A program made the translations under genes and the position numbers. Shown here piece after piece: positions 8,046 to 16,737 of a stretch of 64,000 bases of DNA (position 1 is the first letter of the stretch; every line of letters starts with the position of its first letter). Under the pieces are notes generated by a model that saw nothing but the letters and a program-made list of their open reading frames with translations, searched no databases and had not been told where the DNA came from. The DNA comes from a virus. Where the stretch lies: the IMG/VR virus record IMGVR_UViG_3300049726_000100, positions 17,975 through 81,974 of that record. One strand, 5' to 3'.

Positions 8046-11000
8046 ATGGCAGATATAACAGAAAATACATTATCATCATATTTAGGTCCTGAATTTCAAC
8101 AACATCTTATGTGGCAGTTGTTAGTTGAACCAGAGTTTGCAGAAAAAATAATTCCAGATATAGCAATTGAATATTTTGATGACCCAAATCTTAGAAGATT
8201 ATTTTTAATTATTTTAGAATATTTTAAAGAATTTCAGAAAGTTCCAAATCTTCAAAATCAAAGTATTCATCAAGCAATTAATAAATATAAAACTCCAAAT
8301 AATGTAATTGAAGAAGAATCATTATTTGCTGTAATTAAACGTATTGAACTTTGGAATGAAAGAATTATTAATAAACAAATGCTTTATGATGGAGATGTTA
8401 TACAAAAATCTACAAATTCTTTTATTAAACAACAAGAATATCGTAAATTAGCTGAAGGTATTATTGATAAAGTAAAAAATGGTGAAATTAAAAGTAAATA
8501 TGTTATTGCAGCAATTGAAGAAAAATTTCAAAAAATTACACATATTGGTGAGGATGAAGATGATTGTGAAGAAGTAATAGAAGGTATTGAAAAAGCATTA
8601 AGAAAAGAATTTAGACAACCAATACCTACTGGAATTGGTGTAATAGATTCATTGACTGGTGGTGGTCTTGGTAAAGGTGAAATTGGTTTAATATTAACAC
8701 CATCAGGTGTAGGAAAAGCCTTGCCAAATAGCCATAAAGTATTAACACCAAATGGTTGGGTTGAAAATGGTACATTAAAAGTTAATGATTATATTTTTGG
8801 TAGTGACGGAAAAAAACAAAAAATATTAGCAGTATATCCACAAGGTAAAAGAAAAATATATAAAGTTACTTTTTCAGACCAAACAATATCTTATTGTGAT
8901 GTAGAACATTTATGGGCAGTTAATTCATTTAAACAAAGAAATCAAAAAACTAATATAAATGGTAAAACATTAAGTATTCCTGACCATACATTTCAGATAT
9001 TAAAAACGTCTGAAATTATGGAAGATATTAAAATAAAAAATAATTTAAATTATAGATTACCTAATGTATTACCAATTCAATTTAATAAATTAGAGGTTAA
9101 AATTGACCCTTATATAATGGGGGTATTATTGGGTGATGGATGTTTAACAAGAAAAAATCAACCACACATTATAACATCAGATTTATTTATTGTTGATAAA
9201 ATATGTAATCTTGAAAAAAATGTTATTGTTCATGAATATGAAGGAAGAAAAGAAAATTATAAAAAATTATATCGAATATCATTAATAAATTCGAGAAATG
9301 TTTTAGAAACAGAACTTAATTTATATGGTACTGATTCAACTAATAAATTTATTCCTAATATTTATTTATATAATTGTATCGAATATAGAGAAAAATTATT
9401 ACAAGGTTTAATTGATTCAGATGGTGGTGTTGGTAAAAATCATTCAATTATTTATTCTACAGTTTCAAAAGAATTATCAAAAAATGTTCGAGAATTAGTA
9501 TTATCATTGGGTGGAACATGTAGAATTAACGAAAAAATTAAATCGTATAATAAAAATGGTGTAAAAGTTTTAGGTAAAAAAAATTATTGTTTAACCATAA
9601 GTTTTCCAAACAATGGTATTAAACCATGTACTTTACCTACCAAACTTGATAGAATTGTAATTCGTGATAAATATGAATATAATAAATTTATAAAAAATAT
9701 TGAATATTCACATGAAGAAGATGCAACATGTATATATGTTGAAAATAATGACCATTTATATATAATTGATGATTATATTTTAACACATAATACTACTGCA
9801 CTTACAATTATTGCTAATACTGCTTATGAACAAGAAAAAAATGTTGCACAAATTATAATTGAAGATACAAAAGAACAGATTAAACGTAAACATTATACTA
9901 TTTGGGCAAAATCTGCATTAAGTAAACTTGATGATGAGGATGAAAATGCAAGAGTTTTTAAAATTGCAACAGAAAAAGCAGAATCATTAGAAGGAAAAGG
10001 TAGACTTTTGATTAAACAATTTAGTCAGGAAAATACTACAATGTTGGATATTAAAAATTGGATGATAGGATATCAAAAAAAATATGGTTTTAAATTTGAT
10101 ATACTTGTAATAGATTATCTTGATTGCCTTGAATCTCATAAAAAATCACCAGATAGAAATGAAGCTGAATTACAAATAGTAAAATCTTTTGAAGCACTTG
10201 CTTCAGATTTTGATATACCTGCATGGTCAGCAATTCAAACTAATCGTTCTGGTTTTGGTGCTGCAATTGTTGGAGCACAACAAACAGGTGGCAATATTAA
10301 AAGAATTCAAAAAGCACATTTTTTTATGTCAGTTGCTAAAACACCAGCACAACAAGATGCAAATTTTGCTAATATTAGTATTCTTAAAGCAAGATTTGCA
10401 AAAGATGGACAAACATTTGAAGATTGTATTTTTAATAATGATACAATGCAAATTATTATAACTGACTCAAAATATCCTGTAAAGAATAAACTGAAACATT
10501 ACGATGAAAATGATGTAAATAAAGTTGAAAGTACTGCAAATAAAATGCATGTTGTTGTTAGTCAACTTGCTGAAGATTCTAAAAATGCTGTTGATGTTGT
10601 AAATTTATCTTCTACTGAAATTAATAGATTATTGCAAAACAATTCTGAATTTGAAATTGAACAAAATACAGTAAAAGAAAATGAAACTGTAATAAAAACA
10701 AATACTGACGAACCTATTGTAAAAAAAGAAGAACCTATTGTTAAGACCGAACCGATTAAAGCTGAAAGTAGTGATTTTATTGAACAAATGAGAAGAGAGA
10801 TTGAAGGTGAGATACATGGTGTTCCTGTTAAACAAATAGAAAATATTCATATTAGTACTACAAGAATAGATTTAAATCAAAATGAAATTAAACAAATAAT
10901 TGATATTGCCAACGAAGCAATACTGGAAATTAATGGTGTGGTTGAAGAATTAAATGAAGAAATAATTCATCCTGAAGTAATATTTCATGAAGAACAAATA

Positions 11001-11366
11001 AAAAGGGATGAAAAAAAAGAACCATTTGAATGGAATGGTGAATCAGGTAGTACAATTAATGAAATTATTAATCAACCAGAAGTAAAATTAGAAGATATTA
11101 AAAAATCATTAGATTTAACTAAATTTGTTCCACCGGGAGTTTTTGTTAAAGAAATTGATAATAATATTGTTGAAAAAAATCGTGAGATTAAAGAAGAAAA
11201 TTTAACAATAAAACCATTAATTGAAAGAACAAATAAAAATATTAATATAAAAGAATTGGAAAATAAATTATTAATTGACCCTGATGAGCCACAAGAAAAT
11301 GAAAAAAATGTATTTAATATTTTAAATAAAGCACGTCAAAATCAGAGAGTTATAAAAGATGATTAA
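8046..11366 (+). CDS. DnaB/gp41-like replicative helicase interrupted by an intein
   Basis: A 1106-residue precursor; removal of residues 225-582 leaves an extein of 748 residues. The N-terminal part (about 1-170) resembles the helical DnaB/gp41 N-domain. The RecA-type core has Walker A (TPSGVGK at 218-224, continuing with TT after the intein), IIIEDTKEQIKRKHYT and the Walker B-like ILVIDYLDCLES. The core ends near residue 820. A long, charged C-terminal tail rich in Glu, Lys and Ile, including EEPIVK-type repeats, is much longer than in T4 gp41 and may be an interaction platform. It would be the hexameric 5'-3' helicase at the fork, active only after splicing because the P-loop is split. Confidence 0.85.
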   Translation: MADITENTLSSYLGPEFQQHLMWQLLVEPEFAEKIIPDIAIEYFDDPNLRRLFLIILEYFKEFQKVPNLQNQSIHQAINKYKTPNNVIEEESLFAVIKRIELWNERIINKQMLYDGDVIQKSTNSFIKQQEYRKLAEGIIDKVKNGEIKSKYVIAAIEEKFQKITHIGEDEDDCEEVIEGIEKALRKEFRQPIPTGIGVIDSLTGGGLGKGEIGLILTPSGVGKALPNSHKVLTPNGWVENGTLKVNDYIFGSDGKKQKILAVYPQGKRKIYKVTFSDQTISYCDVEHLWAVNSFKQRNQKTNINGKTLSIPDHTFQILKTSEIMEDIKIKNNLNYRLPNVLPIQFNKLEVKIDPYIMGVLLGDGCLTRKNQPHIITSDLFIVDKICNLEKNVIVHEYEGRKENYKKLYRISLINSRNVLETELNLYGTDSTNKFIPNIYLYNCIEYREKLLQGLIDSDGGVGKNHSIIYSTVSKELSKNVRELVLSLGGTCRINEKIKSYNKNGVKVLGKKNYCLTISFPNNGIKPCTLPTKLDRIVIRDKYEYNKFIKNIEYSHEEDATCIYVENNDHLYIIDDYILTHNTTALTIIANTAYEQEKNVAQIIIEDTKEQIKRKHYTIWAKSALSKLDDEDENARVFKIATEKAESLEGKGRLLIKQFSQENTTMLDIKNWMIGYQKKYGFKFDILVIDYLDCLESHKKSPDRNEAELQIVKSFEALASDFDIPAWSAIQTNRSGFGAAIVGAQQTGGNIKRIQKAHFFMSVAKTPAQQDANFANISILKARFAKDGQTFEDCIFNNDTMQIIITDSKYPVKNKLKHYDENDVNKVESTANKMHVVVSQLAEDSKNAVDVVNLSSTEINRLLQNNSEFEIEQNTVKENETVIKTNTDEPIVKKEEPIVKTEPIKAESSDFIEQMRREIEGEIHGVPVKQIENIHISTTRIDLNQNEIKQIIDIANEAILEINGVVEELNEEIIHPEVIFHEEQIKRDEKKEPFEWNGESGSTINEIINQPEVKLEDIKKSLDLTKFVPPGVFVKEIDNNIVEKNREIKEENLTIKPLIERTNKNINIKELENKLLIDPDEPQENEKNVFNILNKARQNQRVIKDD
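8718..9791 (+). mobile_element. class 3 intein with LAGLIDADG endonuclease inside the helicase P-loop
   Basis: Residues 225-582 of the precursor (358 residues) start with Ala (ALPNSHKVLTPNGW) and end ILTHN, followed by Thr at +1. Block B has EHLW (His B:10, Trp B:12), block F has ATCIYVENNDHLYI with Cys at F:4, and block G has Thr in ILTHN. This W-C-T triplet with a non-nucleophilic first residue is the signature of class 3 inteins, which use the block F Cys as first nucleophile. The endonuclease blocks are YIMGVLLGDGCL and LLQGLIDSDGGV. The insertion point lies between Lys and Thr of GVGK/TT. Confidence 0.88.
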
Positions 11367-11459: not shown

Positions 11460-11490
11460 TTGCACAATTAAAAAATGTGTTATAGATTTG
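11460..11490 (+). promoter_or_regulatory. Bacteroidota-type promoter of the RNA locus
   Basis: TTG at 11460-11462 and TAGATTTG at 11483-11490, spaced by 20 bases, match the Bacteroidota consensus. Transcription would begin shortly before the boxA-like element and the tRNA. Confidence 0.75.
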
Positions 11491-11510
11491 CATCGTCAAA
11501 ATGATATAAC

Positions 11511-11521
11511 GTTCTTTAAAA
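11511..11521 (+). promoter_or_regulatory. boxA-like element before the tRNA
   Basis: GTTCTTTAAAA resembles the boxA antitermination core (TGCTCTTTAA) used on stable-RNA operons by NusB/S10. The same 11 bases occur at 11786-11796, just before another structured RNA. Confidence 0.4.
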
Positions 11522-11537
11522 AGATTAAAAAGTATAT

Positions 11538-11609
11538 TGCGGGGTGGAGAAGAGGCATCTCGTTTGGCTCATAACCAAAAGGTCGGGGGTTCAAGTCCCT
11601 CTCCCGCTA
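11538..11609 (+). tRNA. initiator-like tRNA-Met (CAT)
   Basis: Full cloverleaf: acceptor GCGGGG/TCCCGC with an unpaired 1-72 (T-T), D-stem GAGA/TCTC with a 7-base loop, anticodon stem TTTGG/CCAAA with loop CTCATAA, variable AGGTC, T-stem GGGGG/CCCTC with TTCAAGT. The 1-72 mismatch and the A11-T24 pair are bacterial initiator hallmarks. Two of the three anticodon-stem G-C pairs are present. CCA is not encoded. Confidence 0.88.
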
Positions 11610-11613
11610 CAAA

Positions 11614-11680
11614 GATTAAGAGGTCACGGCATACACTCCGTTGAAAGTAAGTCACAAAAGAAGACTGCGCCAACTTAATC
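11614..11680 (+). ncRNA. structured RNA segment closed by a 7-bp stem
   Basis: GATTAAG (11614-11620) pairs with CTTAATC (11674-11680). Inside, CGG/CCG and AGTC/GACT hairpins are possible. ACGGCATACA at 11626-11635 can instead pair over 10 bp with TGTATGCCGT at 11724-11733 in the next RNA, so two exclusive folds, or a pseudoknot, exist. No known family is recognised. Confidence 0.4.
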
Positions 11681-11686
11681 AAAATG

Positions 11687-11775
11687 AGAAGAACTGATAG
11701 TGTTTACAGCAGTTGAAAAATAATGTATGCCGTCCATGAGTGACGGCAGAAAAACAATACTAACAAATTTCTTCT
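11687..11775 (+). ncRNA. Y-RNA-like RNA 1 (shared helix plus hairpin)
   Basis: Outer helix AGAAGAA (11687-11693)/TTCTTCT (11769-11775); internal loop CTGA by ACAAAT; inner helix TAGTGTT (11698-11704)/AATACTA (11756-11762) with one G-T wobble; then ACAG. The interior holds a hairpin GCCGTC/GACGGC with loop CATGAGT (11729-11747). Helix geometry and loop sizes match the three following RNAs. No tRNA-like arms are seen. Confidence 0.65.
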
Positions 11776-11785
11776 AATTTTTAAA

Positions 11786-11796
11786 GTTCTTTAAAA
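11786..11796 (+). promoter_or_regulatory. second boxA-like element
   Basis: GTTCTTTAAAA, identical to 11511-11521, lies five bases before the acceptor stem of the next tRNA-like RNA. Confidence 0.4.
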
Positions 11797-11800
11797 TATA

Positions 11801-11938
11801 TGGGGAGATAGCAAAATAAAAAACAAAAAATACTATCTCACTGCTCTCTTAACAGAGAGAACTGATTGTATTTTCAGTAAAAGGTAAAGCAATTGTCGTT
11901 AAAACAATGATGTGCAGGTTCAAATCCTGCTCTCCCCA
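11801..11938 (+). ncRNA. Y-RNA-like RNA 2: tRNA-like frame with the shared helix inserted in the D-loop
   Basis: Acceptor GGGGAGA (11801-11807)/TCTCCCC, discriminator A, T-arm GCAGG-TTCAAAT-CCTGC, an arm ATTGT-CGTTAAA-ACAAT in the anticodon position, and a GGTAAAGC D-type segment. Between the first D bases and GGT lies the shared helix as a closed hairpin: AAATACTA (11828-11835), TCTCAC, TGCTCTCT, tetraloop TAAC, AGAGAGAA, CTGA, TTGTATTT (11866-11873), TCAG. The arm loop has G where tRNA has U33, so decoding is doubtful. Anticodon-like TTA would read UAA, but I do not claim it. CCA is not encoded. Confidence 0.65.
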
Positions 11939-11977
11939 CAAATTTAAATGCGATATATAATTGCATAATAGTACAAA

Positions 11978-12120
11978 GGGAAAACGTAAAGTGTTTACAG
12001 TAATTTCGATGGTTCGAGTCCATCATTATTCGCCAAAATTGAATAATTAGACAAGCTGGTTAAGTCACAAGTCAGTTAAACTTGCAAAACAAAAACAACA
12101 AATACTTTAAAATTGTTCCC
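11978..12120 (+). ncRNA. Y-RNA-like RNA 3: circularly permuted tRNA-like module on the shared helix
   Basis: Outer helix GGGAA/TTCCC (12116-12120); internal loop CGTA by TAAAAT; inner helix AAGTGTTT (11989-11996)/AAATACTT (12100-12107); ACAG. The interior is a tRNA in permuted order: T-arm GATGG-TTCGAGT-CCATC (12008-12024), 3' acceptor strand ATTATTC, a 9-base loop, 5' acceptor strand GAATAAT (12041-12047), TA, D-arm GAC-AAGCTGGTTAA-GTC with the conserved GG, A, and an arm CAAGT-CAGTTAA-ACTTG (12068-12084). An A-rich linker leads back to the helix. T-loop and D-loop contact residues are kept. This arrangement matches what is known of YrlA-type bacterial Y RNAs. Confidence 0.75.
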
Positions 12121-12131
12121 TAAGTTATAAA

Positions 12132-12219
12132 GCGGTAAAAAGTTGTTAATAATAACAAATTAAACCCGCAAGTTTTTAGTTGTTGATATCAGAGTTTTTT
12201 ACAAAAACAAATTATATCA
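12132..12219 (+). ncRNA. structured spacer RNA of unknown family
   Basis: Two nested-hairpin units: GCGG (12132-12135)/CCGC (12166-12169) enclosing TTGTTA-ATAA-TAACAA, and TGATAT (12184-12189)/ATATCA (12214-12219) enclosing GTTTTT-TAC-AAAAAC. No shared-helix motif is present. Function unknown. Confidence 0.4.
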
Positions 12220-12252
12220 CCTAACATTTAATTGGTTAAAAATGGTTTTTCG

Positions 12253-12271
12253 AGCAGAAGTGCTTTTTTTT
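12253..12271 (+). terminator. weak intrinsic terminator inside the RNA locus
   Basis: AGCA-GAAG-TGCT followed by seven to eight T residues. The stem is only 4 bp, so termination is probably partial and would lower the level of RNA 4. Confidence 0.45.
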
Positions 12272-12287
12272 CTAAAAAAGGAATACT

Positions 12288-12379
12288 GAAGAACTTGTTG
12301 TGAATACAGTAAATTGTAAAAATGAAATCCCCTTCGTGAGAGAGGGGACAAACTTACCAAATTACAACTAAACTTCTTC
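12288..12379 (+). ncRNA. Y-RNA-like RNA 4 (shared helix plus hairpin)
   Basis: Outer helix GAAGAA (12288-12293)/TTCTTC (12374-12379); internal loop CTTG by CTAAAC; inner helix TTGTGA (12298-12303)/TTACAA (12362-12367) with the G-T wobble in the same place as in RNAs 1 and 3; ACAG. The interior hairpin CCCC/GGGG has a loop containing GTGAG, recalling the ATGAGT loop of RNA 1. Confidence 0.65.
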
Positions 12380-12412: not shown

Positions 12413-12462
12413 AATGGGCGGGGATTTGATTAAGAAATTAATCAATACTTGCCCATTTTTTT
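12413..12462 (+). terminator. strong terminator ending the RNA locus
   Basis: AATGGGC (12413-12419)/GCCCATT (12451-12457) encloses an 8-bp TTGATTAA-GAAA-TTAATCAA hairpin and is followed by a T-run. Confidence 0.85.
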
Positions 12463-12583: not shown

Positions 12584-13414
12584 ATGAAAGAAGAAATTAA
12601 AAAATTTGAATTTGAAGGAAATGAAATTTCATTTCTCACAGGCAGTAATGTTATGATAAATGCCACGGAAATGGCAAATCTTTTTGATGTTAAACCAAAT
12701 TTTTGGTTAAAAACTGATACTGCACAAAGAATTATTGCTAAATATGCCGAGTTGAAGAATATCAATACGGCTGATTTAGTGATGATTAGGCAGGGTGGTA
12801 ATGATAAATCTGCACAAGGAACTTGGATACATGAAGATATTGCTTTAATTTTTGCACAGTGGCTTTCACCAGAATTTTATTTTTGGTGTAATGACAGAAT
12901 AAAAGAGTTGTTCAAATATGGAATTACTGCAACACAAGAAAAAATAAGAAAAATTGTTTTTTCTTTAAGTGAAGCAACAAATGTTTTGAAGAATAATAGT
13001 AATTGTAAGACCGGAAGATATAAAATTTATGAACAATTACGTTTGAGAGGAATTCTTGATGAACATAATAAACCTTTTCCAGAATTTATTAATAAAGGTT
13101 ATTTTACATGCGAACCATTAGAAAGTAACAAATATATAAAACGTATTATGGTTGGTGAAGAAGGATTAAAATGGTTAAATCAAGCGTTTTATCCTGAACA
13201 AAATGTTTCTGAGGATTATTTGGAACTGAAAATGAGGATTGATGAAATGCAACATGACCAAGCAATAATATTAGAAGGTATTGCGGTAGTTGCTGAAACA
13301 ATGCTTATGGCAAAGGGTGGTCATCTTACTGATGAAATGAGTAAAAATGTAACAAATAGATTACGTGATTTTGTTGAAAAATCAAAGAAAATTCAACTTG
13401 CACTTAATAAATAA
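12584..13414 (+). CDS. KilA-N domain DNA-binding protein, antirepressor-like
   Basis: A 276-residue protein. Residues about 5-120 match KilA-N: MINATEMANLFDVKPNFWLK, a GTWIHEDIALIFAQWLSPEF core and CNDRIKELF. The C-terminal part (about 135-215) resembles the winged-helix domain of phage antirepressors (GRYKIYEQLRLRGILDEHNKPF, GLKWLNQAFYPE), followed by a helical tail. Such proteins bind DNA and act as regulators in phages and large DNA viruses. It opens the operon that contains the Ro60-like gene, ending 11 bases before it, under its own host-type promoter, so it may control that operon or the RNA locus upstream. This role is inferred. Confidence 0.78.
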   Translation: MKEEIKKFEFEGNEISFLTGSNVMINATEMANLFDVKPNFWLKTDTAQRIIAKYAELKNINTADLVMIRQGGNDKSAQGTWIHEDIALIFAQWLSPEFYFWCNDRIKELFKYGITATQEKIRKIVFSLSEATNVLKNNSNCKTGRYKIYEQLRLRGILDEHNKPFPEFINKGYFTCEPLESNKYIKRIMVGEEGLKWLNQAFYPEQNVSEDYLELKMRIDEMQHDQAIILEGIAVVAETMLMAKGGHLTDEMSKNVTNRLRDFVEKSKKIQLALNK

Positions 13415-13424
13415 ATTATATATT

Positions 13425-15059
13425 ATGGAAAATTTGGTATTAACACAGAAAATGTTGGCAACAGTTAAGCAATCATTAATTGATGGTCTTACTATTGCAT
13501 CTGGTAGTAAAAGTTCAGCAACTTACTATCACAGTAAAGACGAACAAATGAAAGCAATTCAGGGTCAAATAAAGAACCTGTATAAACTTTCAAAGGAACT
13601 CCCATTGATTATAGCAAGTCAAAAAGGAGCTACTGGTAGATTTGTTTCTGAAGTACTTTTGAATGAATTCAAAAATACTTTAAGGGGTGGAGCATGTAAT
13701 ATTGTTAATCCAATTGATTGGTATGATAATGGTTTAAGTGATAAGGCAGTACTTTCTGCATTAAACAATCTTGGCGAAAATGGTTTACCATATGTATTAC
13801 GTCTTTTCATTGATTTGAAGAATGAAAAAGTAAACAATGAAAGAACAAGAAAAATTATGCTTGGTTTTATTTGGGGTCAAGCAAATCTTGAATTCTATTC
13901 AATGAAATATCGTAATAAAATTGCTGAAGTACTTAGGCATGCATATGGTGTTAAGAAAACATCAATATTACTTTCAATTGCTCAAAAACAAATAAATATT
14001 AATGGAGCAACTTTGCTTGGAAGTGAAAAAGAAATGAGTATTGTAAATGAATGTATATTGAAATATTTCAATGGTGATTCAATTAAAGCATTCAAATTGT
14101 TATTATTTTTATTTAAAAAAGATAGTGGCGTAGCATATAATGCAACTGAATTTCCTCTTTTAAGTGAATATCAGAAAGCAAAAATTGATATTACTGGTAT
14201 TAAAAATGTACCAGAAGAAGTTTTACTTGGTTTAATTTCAAGTGTAAAACATCCACAATATCATTCAATGTGGTCAACTGATATTCAGAAAGAAGCAACA
14301 AAAGCACTTATTCGTAAGAATGTTGAAGTTACTTCTGTAAATCAGCAGGTTCGTCAAACCAAATCAACTGCAAAGTTGGGTGTTGAAAAAACTGTTGATT
14401 TGGAAAAAGCAACTGATTTTCTTGCACTTTACAAAACTGGTTATGAAAATGGTTTTACTGACGAAATTAGGTCAGCAATTGTAAAACTTGCACAAAAGAA
14501 AAAAATTCAGGGATTCTTTTACCAGAATATTGGTGTTATTGTCGATAAAAGTGTATCTATGACTGGTGATAAAAATGAATCAAAAAATACACCAATGGCT
14601 ATTGCAGATTTTACTGCATTGGTTCTAACTGCTTCAGCAAAAGAATCTAACAGAGTAAATACTAGAGGTGAAATTACTGATTTGGCAACATCATTTATTG
14701 ATTTGTTAAAAGAAGAAAATTCTTTAAAACCATATGATGCAATTTTTATTTTAACAGATGGTTATGAAAATGCTTATGATGGATTGACTAATGAAGTTAT
14801 TTCAATTTGGAAAGCAGAAAGTGGTAGGAATATTCCAATGTTCCAAATATCACCAATTACAAGTGCTGAAATGGGTGCTAATGTAAGAAAATTGGGTGAA
14901 GGTGTTGTCACAATGGCAATAAATAATCCAGTCGCATTACAGCCTCAAATCAATGCAAGATTGCTTGAAATTGATACAAAACGTTGGTTGGAAAATCAGG
15001 TATTGGCTCTTGAAGCAGCACCTGTTAAAAGAATTAAAAAAATTAATATAAACGATTAA
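13425..15059 (+). CDS. TROVE/Ro60-like RNA-binding protein with C-terminal vWA domain
   Basis: A 544-residue protein, close to Ro60 length (about 540). ATG 13425 is chosen because the longer frame starts inside the KilA-N gene. The N-terminal two-thirds is helical and repeat-like, as in the TROVE ring (IWGQANLEFYSMKYRNKIAE, LRHAYG). The C-terminal vWA domain has a complete MIDAS: DKSVS (Asp374, Ser376, Ser378), a Thr-containing loop and ILTDGYEN (Asp445). Ro60/Rsr proteins bind Y RNAs and misfolded RNA in the ring and are tied to RNA quality control and repair. The structured RNAs 1 kb upstream make such a role plausible. The alternative is a vWA protein of a MoxR-type system; no MoxR ATPase is seen here. 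Confidence 0.68.
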   Translation: MENLVLTQKMLATVKQSLIDGLTIASGSKSSATYYHSKDEQMKAIQGQIKNLYKLSKELPLIIASQKGATGRFVSEVLLNEFKNTLRGGACNIVNPIDWYDNGLSDKAVLSALNNLGENGLPYVLRLFIDLKNEKVNNERTRKIMLGFIWGQANLEFYSMKYRNKIAEVLRHAYGVKKTSILLSIAQKQININGATLLGSEKEMSIVNECILKYFNGDSIKAFKLLLFLFKKDSGVAYNATEFPLLSEYQKAKIDITGIKNVPEEVLLGLISSVKHPQYHSMWSTDIQKEATKALIRKNVEVTSVNQQVRQTKSTAKLGVEKTVDLEKATDFLALYKTGYENGFTDEIRSAIVKLAQKKKIQGFFYQNIGVIVDKSVSMTGDKNESKNTPMAIADFTALVLTASAKESNRVNTRGEITDLATSFIDLLKEENSLKPYDAIFILTDGYENAYDGLTNEVISIWKAESGRNIPMFQISPITSAEMGANVRKLGEGVVTMAINNPVALQPQINARLLEIDTKRWLENQVLALEAAPVKRIKKININD

Positions 15060-15067
15060 TAATTTGT

Positions 15068-15634
15068 ATGATACTTGATAAATTAAAATTATTTTTATTT
15101 GAAAAATGGAAGGATGTTATTGATTATGAAGGATATTATCAAATAAGTAATTTTGGTAGATTAAGAAGTGTTGATAGATTTGTGATAAATAAAATGGGTG
15201 TTAAACGAAAATTAAAAGGTTCATTGAAAAATACATATCAAATAAATGGTGGATATTTAATGGTTTCATTAGGTAAGAAAGGTATTAATAAAGCATATTT
15301 AGTACATAAATTAGTAGCAAATGCATTTCTTTTAAATCCATTTAATTATAAACAAATTAATCATAAAAATGGTAATAAAAAAGATAATATATTAAATAAT
15401 TTAGAATGGTGTACTGCAAGAGAAAATACTCATCATGCAAGACAGAAAATGAAAAGTAGTTCTAATTATATTGGAGTTTCATTTTCTCCAAACGATAAAA
15501 CTAATCCTTGGGTTAGTAGAATTACAATTAATGGAAAGATTAAATATATTGGTAGATATTCGAATGAAAAATTAGCATATGAGGCATATTTAAACGAATG
15601 TAAAATTAATAACATTAAAATTAAAAAATTATGA
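15068..15634 (+). CDS. NUMOD4-HNH homing endonuclease
   Basis: A 188-residue protein. The N-terminus has the NUMOD4 pattern EKWKDVIDYEGYYQISNFGRL-RSVDR. The HNH domain follows (about residues 80-125): YLVHKLVANAFL, QINHKNGNKKDN, NNLEWCTARENTHHA. The C-terminal SSNYIGVSFSPND...WVSRI-type segment is an AP2-like DNA-binding domain. It is wedged between the Ro60-like and ARPP-like genes, with its stop overlapping the next start, so it has invaded that operon. Confidence 0.87.
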   Translation: MILDKLKLFLFEKWKDVIDYEGYYQISNFGRLRSVDRFVINKMGVKRKLKGSLKNTYQINGGYLMVSLGKKGINKAYLVHKLVANAFLLNPFNYKQINHKNGNKKDNILNNLEWCTARENTHHARQKMKSSSNYIGVSFSPNDKTNPWVSRITINGKIKYIGRYSNEKLAYEAYLNECKINNIKIKKL

Positions 15635-16737
15635 ATAATCAAAGAGAATTTACTGAACTTTTAAAGGGATGTAGACCACATAAAGATTCAAATGGAAATA
15701 TTATTATTCAATCTATTATGAATATGTCAATAATAACATTGACAACTGATGAAGAAAACTCATTGGATACTAGATTTGCGAATCCATTAACTTCGCTTCA
15801 AGCAGGTAATCAAACTTATGGTCAAATTAGTTTTACTAATAAAGAAAATAAAGAAGTTATTGTACCTACTCAAATGGCTGTTATGACTAAACAAAGTGCT
15901 CAAAATCATGGTATGATAAAGGCGGGTTATTTGGAAAAATATGCAAATACCACTTATCATGATGCAGGTTGTGTACAAGGTGGACAAACAGGTTATTTTT
16001 GTGGAACTAATGAATTTCGTATGATACCCGTATCAATGCGTGAAATGTTATTTGATACAATTGGACAAACAGGTGGTTATTCAAGAATTTATCCTGCTAT
16101 TCAGAAATTGGGTAGTGATACTCAATCTGGTACAGGTAATTACTTGAATGTATATTTCGAAAAATATGATAAGAAACTTGAACAGTTTATTGCACATTTT
16201 GAACGTCCACGTAATCTTATTGGTATTATTGTTTTAATAGATGGTGAAATTGTTGCAATAGACAAATTTCCTTCATTCACATATGCTGAACAGGTATGGG
16301 ATTTGATGATTCGTGACTGTTATGGTTCTTTGGCTATCATTTCTGAAATTAAGAAGAAAAGTTCTGGAAAAGAATTTACTTCAACATATAATGAAATGAA
16401 AAAAACTCATCAAGAAAATATTGTTGATTTACTTGAAAAAGCATTAAAGAAAACAAAACAGAATATGACAGCTAATGTTCAGGAAAAGATTCAAGAACTA
16501 CTTGAACTTACTTTTGATGCAACTCTTGATACAGAAGGACAATCAACTTTTGCAAAAGCACCAAAATCTTATGTTTTAAAAGAAACTAATAATAGTTATG
16601 TTGGTCAAGTGATTACTGAAAATGAATTTAATCATCTTGTAAGTATAGTTAAAAGAGAAAAATTTGACCCTAATGCTTATAGAGAAGTTAACGAATTGAG
16701 AAAAAAAGCTAGAAAGCAAGAAAAATTTACTTTATAA
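15631..16737 (+). CDS. ARPP-1-like protein (Ro60-operon partner)
   Basis: A 368-residue protein. Residues about 40-215 follow the ARPP-1 pattern known from operons with vWA and RNA-repair genes: a beta-rich start with VIVPTQMAVMT and QSAQNHGM, CVQGGQTGYF (family form: C-E-x-G-R-W), SMREMLFDTI, then a QS.TGNY-type turn, and the closing LIGIIVLIDGEIVAIDKF-P with a final Trp helix. The C-terminal 140 residues are helical and charged. The biochemical activity of the family is not established. With the TROVE-vWA gene it forms one transcription unit that ends at a strong terminator, so I infer a joint function. Confidence 0.65.
   Translation: MNNQREFTELLKGCRPHKDSNGNIIIQSIMNMSIITLTTDEENSLDTRFANPLTSLQAGNQTYGQISFTNKENKEVIVPTQMAVMTKQSAQNHGMIKAGYLEKYANTTYHDAGCVQGGQTGYFCGTNEFRMIPVSMREMLFDTIGQTGGYSRIYPAIQKLGSDTQSGTGNYLNVYFEKYDKKLEQFIAHFERPRNLIGIIVLIDGEIVAIDKFPSFTYAEQVWDLMIRDCYGSLAIISEIKKKSSGKEFTSTYNEMKKTHQENIVDLLEKALKKTKQNMTANVQEKIQELLELTFDATLDTEGQSTFAKAPKSYVLKETNNSYVGQVITENEFNHLVSIVKREKFDPNAYREVNELRKKARKQEKFTL

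What the first reader, a model, noticed from the sequence alone, without database searches (positions are those of the whole stretch)
11687..12379. Four RNAs share one helix with a 4-by-6 internal loop and compensatory changes
Seen directly: gapless alignment of 11687-11709, 11854-11877, 11980-12000 and 12287-12309 on the terminal (A/T)CAG. Each 5' strand has a partner strand giving an outer helix, an internal loop of 4 nt (CTGA, CTGA, CGTA, CTTG) by 6 nt (ACAAAT, TCTCAC, TAAAAT, CTAAAC), then an inner helix with a GTG/TAC core (GTA/TAC in RNA 2). Outer-helix sequences differ (AGAAGAA/TTCTTCT, AGAGAG/CTCTCT, GGGAA/TTCCC, GAAGAA/TTCTTC) yet keep pairing. RNAs 2 and 3 even share an A-G mismatch at the second outer pair. 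This is strong comparative evidence for a real RNA family inside one locus.
Basis: seen in the sequence. Interest (0 to 1): 0.95.

Follow-up and report, generated by a model that had tools for sequence, protein, structure and literature searches.

The report
Phage tRNA-like RNAs beside Ro60 gene
A large environmental phage carries, next to a hidden Ro60-type RNA-binding protein gene, a cluster of small RNAs that share one handle-like stem and some of which imitate transfer RNAs cut and rejoined in different places, which points to a phage version of the Ro60/Y RNA machine known from animals and bacteria.

Summary
In detail: four RNAs at 11687-12379 share a helix with an asymmetric internal loop, and partner strands keep pairing. 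(1) The stem carries tRNA parts. RNA2 (11802-11938) is a tRNA-like cloverleaf with the stem inserted in its D-arm; RNA3 (11978-12120) is a circularly permuted cloverleaf closed by the stem at the variable region; RNA1 and RNA4 carry short hairpins. (2) The gene downstream (13425-15059) has the Ro60/Rsr fold: all 13 PDB matches with E<=0.001 are Ro60/TROVE chains, though Pfam TROVE does not see it. The motif lies upstream of this gene in 61 of 62 related loci, in 7 of 7 more divergent ones, and in a huge phage whose Ro60 is about 30% identical. In 39 permuted copies cloverleaf plus stem is 99.0% paired, with 18 of 35 pairs doubly compensated. Best reading: Y RNAs whose shared stem is the Ro60 handle; its invariant C facing two or three unpaired residues (my drawing) resembles the vertebrate Ro60 site. 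Function (tethering Ro60 to an effector, decoying tRNA-cutting enzymes, or both) is inferred. tRNA splicing is the main rival. New variant of a known kind.

The parts
11460..11490 (+). promoter-like stretch before the RNA cluster, TTGC...TAGATTTG, of the Bacteroidota type (consensus TAnnTTTG recalled, not from a call)
   Evidence: read; similar TAnnTTTG in L009 and L020. The sigma-70 scan does not cover this type and found no more sites than shuffles.
11538..11610 (+). intact tRNA-Met (CAU), ordinary, first RNA of the cluster
   Evidence: ARAGORN; Rfam RF00005 56.3 bits
11687..11775 (+). RNA1: strand A (11687-11709), hairpin module, strand B (11756-11775); predicted Y RNA without tRNA part
   Evidence: minimum free energy fold shows the stem, -22.6
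11802..11938 (+). RNA2: tRNA-like cloverleaf (acceptor 11802-11808/11931-11937, T-arm, anticodon arm) with the B-A hairpin inserted in the D-arm after 11812
   Evidence: (Rfam tRNA 25.2 bits, below cut-off)
11813..11877 (+). insert of RNA2: strand B (inner AAATAC 11828-11833; CTATCTC 11833-11839, also complementary to the 5' acceptor side; outer CTCTCT 11844-11849) and strand A (11854-11877)
11978..12120 (+). RNA3: circularly permuted tRNA-like. Strand A 11978-12000; T-arm 12008-12024; acceptor 3' strand 12025-12031; GCCA 12032-12035; acceptor 5' strand 12041-12047; D-arm 12050-12066; anticodon arm 12068-12084; strand B ending at 12120
12288..12379 (+). RNA4: strand A (12288-12309), hairpin module, strand B (12362-12379); predicted Y RNA without tRNA part
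12414..12462 (+). terminator-like hairpin ATGGGC...GCCCAT and T run that closes the cluster
   Evidence: read; not listed by the scan, whose loop limit is 8 bases
13425..15059 (+). Ro60/Rsr-fold protein gene (helical part plus vWA domain), 544 aa; the ORF is listed from an upstream GTG at 13365
   Evidence: AlphaFold model; Foldseek; VIA-align; not seen by PHROGs or Pfam
12584..13414 (+). KilA-N domain gene between the RNA cluster and the Ro60 gene (not at this place in several relatives, e.g. L008, L020)
   Evidence: Pfam PF04383

Best explanation
The four RNAs are Y RNAs of a phage-encoded Ro60 ribonucleoprotein. The shared A/B stem, with an invariant C facing unpaired, mostly A residues, is the handle that the neighbouring Ro60-fold protein binds (inferred). 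The part grafted on the handle is an effector module: a tRNA mimic joined at the D-loop (RNA2) or at the variable region in permuted order (RNA3), in relatives also at the acceptor end, or a short hairpin (RNA1, RNA4). The modules would tether Ro60 to something that recognises tRNA elbows or hairpins (a host nuclease such as PNPase, tRNA-modifying or repair enzymes) and could also be stable decoys for tRNA-cutting defences. Shown: structures, covariation, module positions, co-occurrence with a Ro60-fold gene. Inferred: binding, tethering, decoy role, transcription from a promoter before 11500.
For: Ro60 fold next door: the 13 PDB matches with E<=0.001 are all Ro60/TROVE/Rsr, including Thermus phage phiLo Ro60; the ten best VIA-align rows are Ro60/TROVE, Z 14.6 to 11.9 over about 400 residues. 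Linkage: 61 of 62 Ro60 loci carry the motif; the 7 further contigs with 46-66% identical Ro60 each carry two or more elements within 1.2 kb upstream; the huge phage LR756500.1, Ro60 30% identical, carries insert-type and acceptor-type elements 1.4-3.1 kb upstream. Starting from RNA patterns instead, 47 of 66 stretches hold the Ro60 gene. Architecture: 39 of 39 class III elements give an ARAGORN tRNA when read circularly, none as they stand; covariation in all four tRNA stems. Published YrlA has this plan: a stem of 5' and 3' ends bound by Rsr plus a tRNA-like domain (PMC8394870, passage), superposing on tRNA with a circular permutation (PMC11472068, passage). [quoted passage not shown] the C after AA is invariant in 39 of 39, 34 of 34 and 31 of 31 rows.
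Against: No binding or expression data. The Ro60 gene is not found by Pfam TROVE nor by a profile search of PDB sequences; identity rests on a predicted fold (mean pLDDT 77.5) with 12-14% identity and rmsd 6-7 A. No Rfam family matches the RNAs above its cut-off except tRNA-Met (lower-scoring matches). RNA2-type elements have the hairpin inside the RNA, not at its ends, and their 5' strand also pairs with the insert (7 bp in 21, 6 bp in 8, 5 bp in 2 of 31; shuffles average 4.92), which looks like an intron feature. One 140.8-kb contig (L119) has class II and III elements but no Ro60, and one Ro60 locus (L041) shows no motif in 962 upstream bases. The bulge resemblance is to vertebrate Y RNAs; no bacterial consensus could be tested.
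Confidence: 0.8

Rival explanations
1. The A/B stem is a splicing element: it marks introns in phage tRNAs (RNA2) and, in A-B order, permuted tRNAs (RNA3) that are cut at CAG| and rejoined, giving mature or circular tRNAs.
For: Skipping the insert GC|...CAG| turns 30 of 31 RNA2-type elements into ARAGORN tRNAs (1 of 31 with the insert). ATP-dependent RNA ligases (PF09414) over cut-off in 8 of 10 records. The insert pairs with the 5' strand. The sequence after the stem, NCAGTAA, is largely conserved across classes.
Against: No conserved 5' boundary. In 7 of 39 RNA3-type rows only 5 nt separate the acceptor strands (L013, L014, L016, L023, L031, L033, L042), a nearly closed end; a closed acceptor loop in YrlA is recalled. 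Position 33 is U in 25 of 39 class III and 21 of 30 recognised class I, against 53 of 53 tRNA-Met of the same loci, so decoding is not conserved. RNA1 and RNA4 contain no recognisable tRNA. No tRNA-splicing endonuclease (PF01974) and no RtcB over cut-off in 10 records, which are partly fragments. Jumbo phages carry RNA ligases for repair (PMC7824862, passage). It does not explain the Ro60 gene.
Confidence: 0.1
2. The stems are tRNA-processing or stabilising signals in a tRNA operon, unrelated to Ro60; the gene next door is a neighbour by chance.
For: The cluster starts with an intact tRNA-Met, and boxA-like GTTCTTTAA repeats precede several RNAs (read). The first sample of related loci was drawn by the Ro60 gene itself.
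Against: Co-occurrence holds down to about 30% protein identity in a 462-kb phage and mostly when the search starts from RNA patterns.
Confidence: 0.07
3. Decayed tRNA genes broken by insertions.
For: Loss of U33 in part of the copies and of encoded CCA in part of them.
Against: Acceptor pairing 215 of 217 positions in 31 class I elements; 99.0% paired cells in class III; insertion in the same region of the tRNA in divergent phages.
Confidence: 0.02

Closest known systems
Bacterial Y RNA YrlA (Salmonella, PDB 6CU1) with Rsr
   Same: Long stem of 5' and 3' ends that binds the Ro60 protein, tRNA-like domain with D, T and acceptor arms, circular permutation relative to tRNA, gene next to the Ro60 gene (PMC8394870, PMC11472068, PMC7790460, passages)
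   Different: Here several Y RNAs per genome with interchangeable modules; the stem sits at three different places of the tRNA mimic; an anticodon arm with covarying stem is kept; no Rfam family matches. The stem sequences were not compared with YrlA directly
Vertebrate Y RNA lower stem
   Same: Single unpaired C with an unpaired stretch on the other strand in a conserved helix (PMC4726728, passage)
   Different: Different sequence (recalled); here the C faces the bulge inside one internal loop; vertebrate Y RNAs have no tRNA mimic (recalled)
Jumbo-phage ROT/TROVE proteins, Thermus phage phiLo Ro60 (PDB 9l5y)
   Same: Phage-encoded Ro60 fold
   Different: 11-13% identity to phiLo Ro60 in the structural alignments; here a linked multi-RNA cluster is described; the jumbo-phage paper mentions a tRNA-like partner only for cellular organisms in the passage seen
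Permuted and intron-bearing tRNA genes of red algae and archaea (PMC3978253, PMC3218864, abstracts in search listings)
   Same: 3' half before 5' half; helix formed by the flanks (recalled)
   Different: Those are spliced at bulge-helix-bulge sites by an endonuclease; none found here, and U33 is not conserved

Membership tests
Ro60/Rsr protein | Helical ring (TROVE) plus vWA domain fold | tested here: met
   top 13 Foldseek and top 10 VIA rows are Ro60/TROVE
Ro60/Rsr protein | DxSxS metal-site motif of the vWA domain (motif recalled) | tested here: met
   D374, S376, S378 invariant in 38 aligned sequences
Ro60/Rsr protein | Sequence match to Pfam TROVE PF05731 (a test of sequence reach, not a defining trait of the fold) | tested here: not met
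   none for the window protein and the LR756500.1 protein; 0 of 8 records (control: Deinobacterium chartae rings)
Y RNA | Encoded next to a Ro60 gene | tested here: met
   61 of 62 loci, 7 of 7 divergent loci, LR756500.1; exceptions L041 and L119
Y RNA | Stem formed by the 5' and 3' parts of the RNA | tested here: met
   RNA1, RNA3, RNA4 and class II; RNA2-type carries the stem as an inner hairpin instead; true transcript ends are unknown
Y RNA | Bulged C with three-nucleotide bulge opposite in the stem (vertebrate site) | tested here: inconclusive
   invariant C facing 2-3 unpaired residues; the drawing of the loop is mine and varies by class
Y RNA | Binding by Ro60 | not testable with these tools
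   needs a binding assay
YrlA subfamily | Circularly permuted tRNA-like domain | tested here: met
   RNA3 and 38 homologues; RNA1 and RNA4 lack it, RNA2 is not permuted
YrlA subfamily | Match to an Rfam Y RNA family (library membership, not a biological trait) | tested here: not met
   no Y RNA family listed; that Rfam 15 holds a YrlA family is recalled, not checked
Spliced (bulge-helix-bulge) tRNA intron | tRNA-splicing endonuclease in the genome | tested here: not met
   PF01974: 0 of 10 phage records, partly fragments; a host enzyme is not excluded
Spliced (bulge-helix-bulge) tRNA intron | Functional tRNA after splicing (U33 kept) | tested here: not met
   U33 in 25 of 39 class III, 21 of 30 recognised class I, control 53 of 53
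Group I or II self-splicing intron | Match to the Rfam intron families | tested here: not met
   the RNA2 insert is only 65 nt

The most novel reading that the evidence does not exclude
The shared stem is a new splicing or RNA-circularising device of huge phages: it removes introns from tRNAs and closes permuted tRNA genes and short hairpins into circles, with Ro60 as the RNA chaperone and the phage RNA ligases as the sealing enzymes.
Probability: 0.09. Interest if true: 0.95.

Novelty: new variant of a known kind. Interest (0 to 1): 0.74.

Why it matters
What Y RNAs do in bacteria and phages is an open question (my judgement), and studied bacteria offer few examples each. Here one phage group gives dozens of natural variants in which the same predicted Ro60 handle is grafted on a tRNA mimic at the D-loop, the variable region (permuted, and in L292 also unpermuted) or the acceptor end, or on plain hairpins. 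This natural module-swap experiment makes the tether and decoy ideas testable. It also shows that Ro60 genes too divergent for Pfam can be found beside such RNAs, and that programs which count phage tRNAs overlook such RNAs (ARAGORN: only tRNA-Met in the window) or report them as ordinary tRNAs (class II in relatives).

Tried and rejected
Ribozyme, kink-turn and group I/II intron readings: considered by eye; Rfam gave no match above cut-off besides tRNA-Met and only weak ones below it. Promoter-motif reading of the 18-nt strand: rejected because a partner strand changes with it between classes. Host-genome occurrence: one exact-pattern scan of genome contigs gave 3 stretches with the class III strand; none is followed by a tRNA 3' half, so chance. 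Lak phage and the 634- and 735-kb phage loci near their tRNA-Met: no A-type strand followed by a T-arm in about 12 kb each with my pattern; the rest of those genomes was not searched. A search for relatives of the LR756500.1 Ro60 in viral contigs found one contig, 100% identical in that protein. RtcB: one match below cut-off in 1 of 10 records. Fine placing of splice boundaries with ARAGORN failed because it tolerates long variable loops. VIA-align rows are a second look at Foldseek's own matches. Reviews by Sim and Wolin and the Chen 2014 YrlA paper are not held; their content is used only through passages of other papers or marked as recalled. Pairing of strand B with exon ends in classes II and III was tried by eye and dropped.

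Rows dropped before counts: classes were taken by patterns, so divergent copies (for example in L046 or L286) are not in the counts; identical element sequences were counted once. One of 34 class II elements (L052) lacked a recognisable partner strand and was left out of alignment A3; two of 53 class IV elements (L051, L056) likewise. Of 34 RNA4-type elements listed I aligned 31; L020, L035 and L040 were left out, L035 because its module is short and different, the other two by oversight. ARAGORN recognised 22 of 34 class II elements; position 33 is counted only there. In one search the script's control line reads 0 of 40; 39 elements were given and the extra entry is, I think, ARAGORN's closing line. 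Of the 19 pattern-found stretches without Ro60, 3 lie on contigs with Ro60 elsewhere (L107, L109, L125), 12 end within 639 nt of the motif, L135 ends 1.5 kb after it, L120 and L132 look like chance matches of the B pattern beside a TnpB-like gene, and L119 is a real exception.

Full report
What was claimed and what is there. The four strands and their partners are at the stated coordinates. One correction: in RNA2 the partner strand lies upstream of the motif strand, in the other three downstream. The window is 64 kb of an 82-kb virus record; four contigs carry the neighbour gene with 100% identity, one of them 349 kb long, so this is probably a jumbo phage. Call the motif strand A (consensus AAC-n4-GTGTTTnCAG) and its partner B.

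Relatives. The gene after the cluster was used as bait and gave 62 viral loci; 61 of them carry strand A upstream, mostly two to seven times (none in L041, which holds 962 bases upstream). Reading them shows four layouts. Class I, as RNA2: a tRNA cloverleaf with the B-A hairpin inserted in the D-arm. Class II: A, then a whole tRNA-like, then B, so that the stem extends the acceptor end (in relatives, not in the window). Class III, as RNA3: A, T-arm, acceptor 3' strand, acceptor 5' strand, D-arm, anticodon arm, B, a circularly permuted cloverleaf closed at the variable region. Class IV, as RNA1 and RNA4: A, a short hairpin, B. Outer helices differ by class (GGGAA/TTCCC, AAAGGA/TCCTTT, GAAGAA/TTCTTC, GAGAG/CTCTC), so each class pairs with itself.

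Tests of structure. Of 39 distinct class III elements none gives an ARAGORN tRNA as it stands and all 39 do when read circularly. RNAalifold on the alignment, given no structure, returns the permuted cloverleaf plus stem, 34 pairs, 18 with changes on both sides. With the structure named from the window row, 35 pairs, 99.0% of 1365 cells paired, covariation 0.420 against 0.122 in shuffles and 0.045-0.079 in slid controls; all 7 acceptor and all 5 anticodon-stem pairs change on both sides. The A/B stem itself hardly varies inside class III (of its 15 pairs one has a change on both sides), so its support comes from comparison between classes and. Class II (34 sequences, one from a distant phage): 24 pairs, 11 doubly changed. 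RNA4-type (31 of 34 sequences): 25 pairs, 10 doubly changed. In class I, skipping the insert gives a tRNA in 30 of 31 (1 of 31 with it), and the acceptor pairs in 215 of 217 positions. Minimum free energy folds of RNA1, RNA3 and RNA4 show the stem; RNA2 shows acceptor, T-arm and the inserted hairpin.

Not decoding tRNAs. Position 33 is U in 25 of 39 class III, 21 of 30 recognised class I and 20 of 22 recognised class II elements, and in 53 of 53 tRNA-Met of the same loci. Anticodons within a class differ widely. In 7 of 39 class III rows only 5 nt lie between the two acceptor strands; in the others 7-23.

The neighbour gene. PHROGs, Pfam and a profile search of PDB sequences find nothing relevant in 13425-15059. 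An AlphaFold model from an alignment of 38 sequences (mean pLDDT 77.5, pTM 0.75) matches Ro60: all 13 PDB chains with E<=0.001 are Ro60, Rsr or TROVE, among them Ro60 of Thermus phage phiLo; in the second look the ten best rows are Ro60/TROVE with Z 14.6-11.9 over about 400 residues, and single vWA domains follow at 10.9 and below. The metal-site residues D374, S376, S378 are invariant. Pfam TROVE does not ring in any of 8 records.

Linkage beyond the first sample. A second scan with the alignment brought 7 further contigs with Ro60 46-66% identical; each carries at least two such RNAs within 1.2 kb upstream. In L292 (46%) the stem sequences have changed and still pair, and a tRNA-like with the acceptor strands GGGGAAG/CTTCCCC, also seen in permuted copies, occurs unpermuted, with the hairpin inserted at the variable region; ARAGORN calls it a tRNA with an eight-base anticodon loop once the insert is skipped. 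This looks like a natural permutation pair. In LR756500.1, a 462-kb phage, the Ro60 is 30% identical over the alignment and insert-type and acceptor-type elements lie 1.4-3.1 kb upstream. Starting from RNA patterns alone, 47 of 66 stretches hold the Ro60 gene; the other 19 are told in Tried and rejected, with L119 as a true exception.

Identity. Bacterial Y RNA YrlA is described as 90-150 nt, with a large stem of its 5' and 3' ends that holds the Rsr protein and a tRNA-like domain with D, T and acceptor arms, modified by DusA and TruB, and linked to PNPase (PMC8394870, passages seen); its structure superposes on tRNA with a circular permutation (PMC11472068, passages); it sits in an operon with rsr (PMC7790460, passages). 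A small subset of jumbo phages is said to carry TROVE proteins (PMC7824862, passage), and a Vibrio jumbo phage a Ro60-like protein (PMC7765460, passages). [quoted passage not shown] in the phage RNAs the C after AA is invariant in all three alignments and faces, as I draw it, two or three unpaired, mostly A residues. This resemblance is suggestive only. I therefore read the RNAs as Y RNAs of a phage Ro60 particle. How it works is inferred: the stem holds Ro60, the module recruits or decoys tRNA-binding enzymes. PMC7790460 itself raises the idea that the YrlA tRNA domain competes with an anticodon nuclease (passage).

What stands against it. No binding or RNA data; the fold match has low sequence identity; class I places the stem inside the molecule, and there the 5' strand is complementary both to its acceptor partner and to the insert, also in LR756500.1 (read). 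That double pairing may be a switch or may be a trace of splicing; it is the best argument for the rival and remains unexplained. RNA ligases are present in 8 of 10 records, but jumbo phages carry them for repair.

Novelty. Searches of the paper library for permuted tRNA with phage, tRNA introns with huge phages, bulge-helix-bulge with bacteriophage, intron-containing or split tRNA with jumbo phage, Y RNA with YrlA, Ro60 with phage, bacterial Y RNA with tRNA-like, TROVE with phage, and Thermus phage Ro60 showed, in their listings and the passages read, no report of such RNAs or of a multi-Y-RNA cluster in a phage; listings were capped, and subscription papers and preprints are mostly outside this library. 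That YrlA RNAs occur in some phages is stated in passing in PMC7765460. The huge-phage paper PMC7162821 has no occurrence of intron or permuted in its main text.

Noticed in passing
window 11611-11686: A further conserved segment between tRNA-Met and RNA1 (GATTAAG ... AAGAAGACTGCGCCAA ... CTTAATC); the GAAGACTGCGCCA part recurs just before RNA1-type elements in L010, L016 and L022. Its ACGGCATACA also complements TGTATGCCGT in RNA1. Unknown RNA.
   Followed up: no
window 11510-11519, 11785-11794 and relatives: Repeated GTTCTTTAA, like the boxA antitermination signal of rRNA operons (consensus recalled), before several of the RNAs.
   Followed up: no
L292:4754-4889: Unpermuted counterpart of the permuted class III RNA: same kind of handle inserted in the variable region of a tRNA-like.
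   Followed up: partly
window 8046-11366: One 1106-aa ORF matches terminase large subunit at residues 222-586 and DnaB-like helicase at 585-817, perhaps an intein-like or fused region.
   Followed up: no
window 15068-16737: After the Ro60 gene: a NUMOD4/HNH homing-type endonuclease and an ARPP-1 domain protein.
   Followed up: no
L119 (140.8-kb contig): Carries class II and III elements but no Ro60, with an unrelated-looking ORF downstream; mosaic phage or assembly join.
   Followed up: partly
L120, L132: A 22-nt match to the class II B strand just upstream of a TnpB-like gene (named by eye), without strand A; probably chance.
   Followed up: partly
window 11802-11938 and L142 4867-5400: In class I the 5' strand can pair with two partners, acceptor 3' strand or insert; the alternative helix would form a pseudoknot with the inner stem helix.
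   Followed up: partly
L035:4780-4843: The RNA4-type element has a much shorter, different module (64 nt in all) than its relatives.
   Followed up: no
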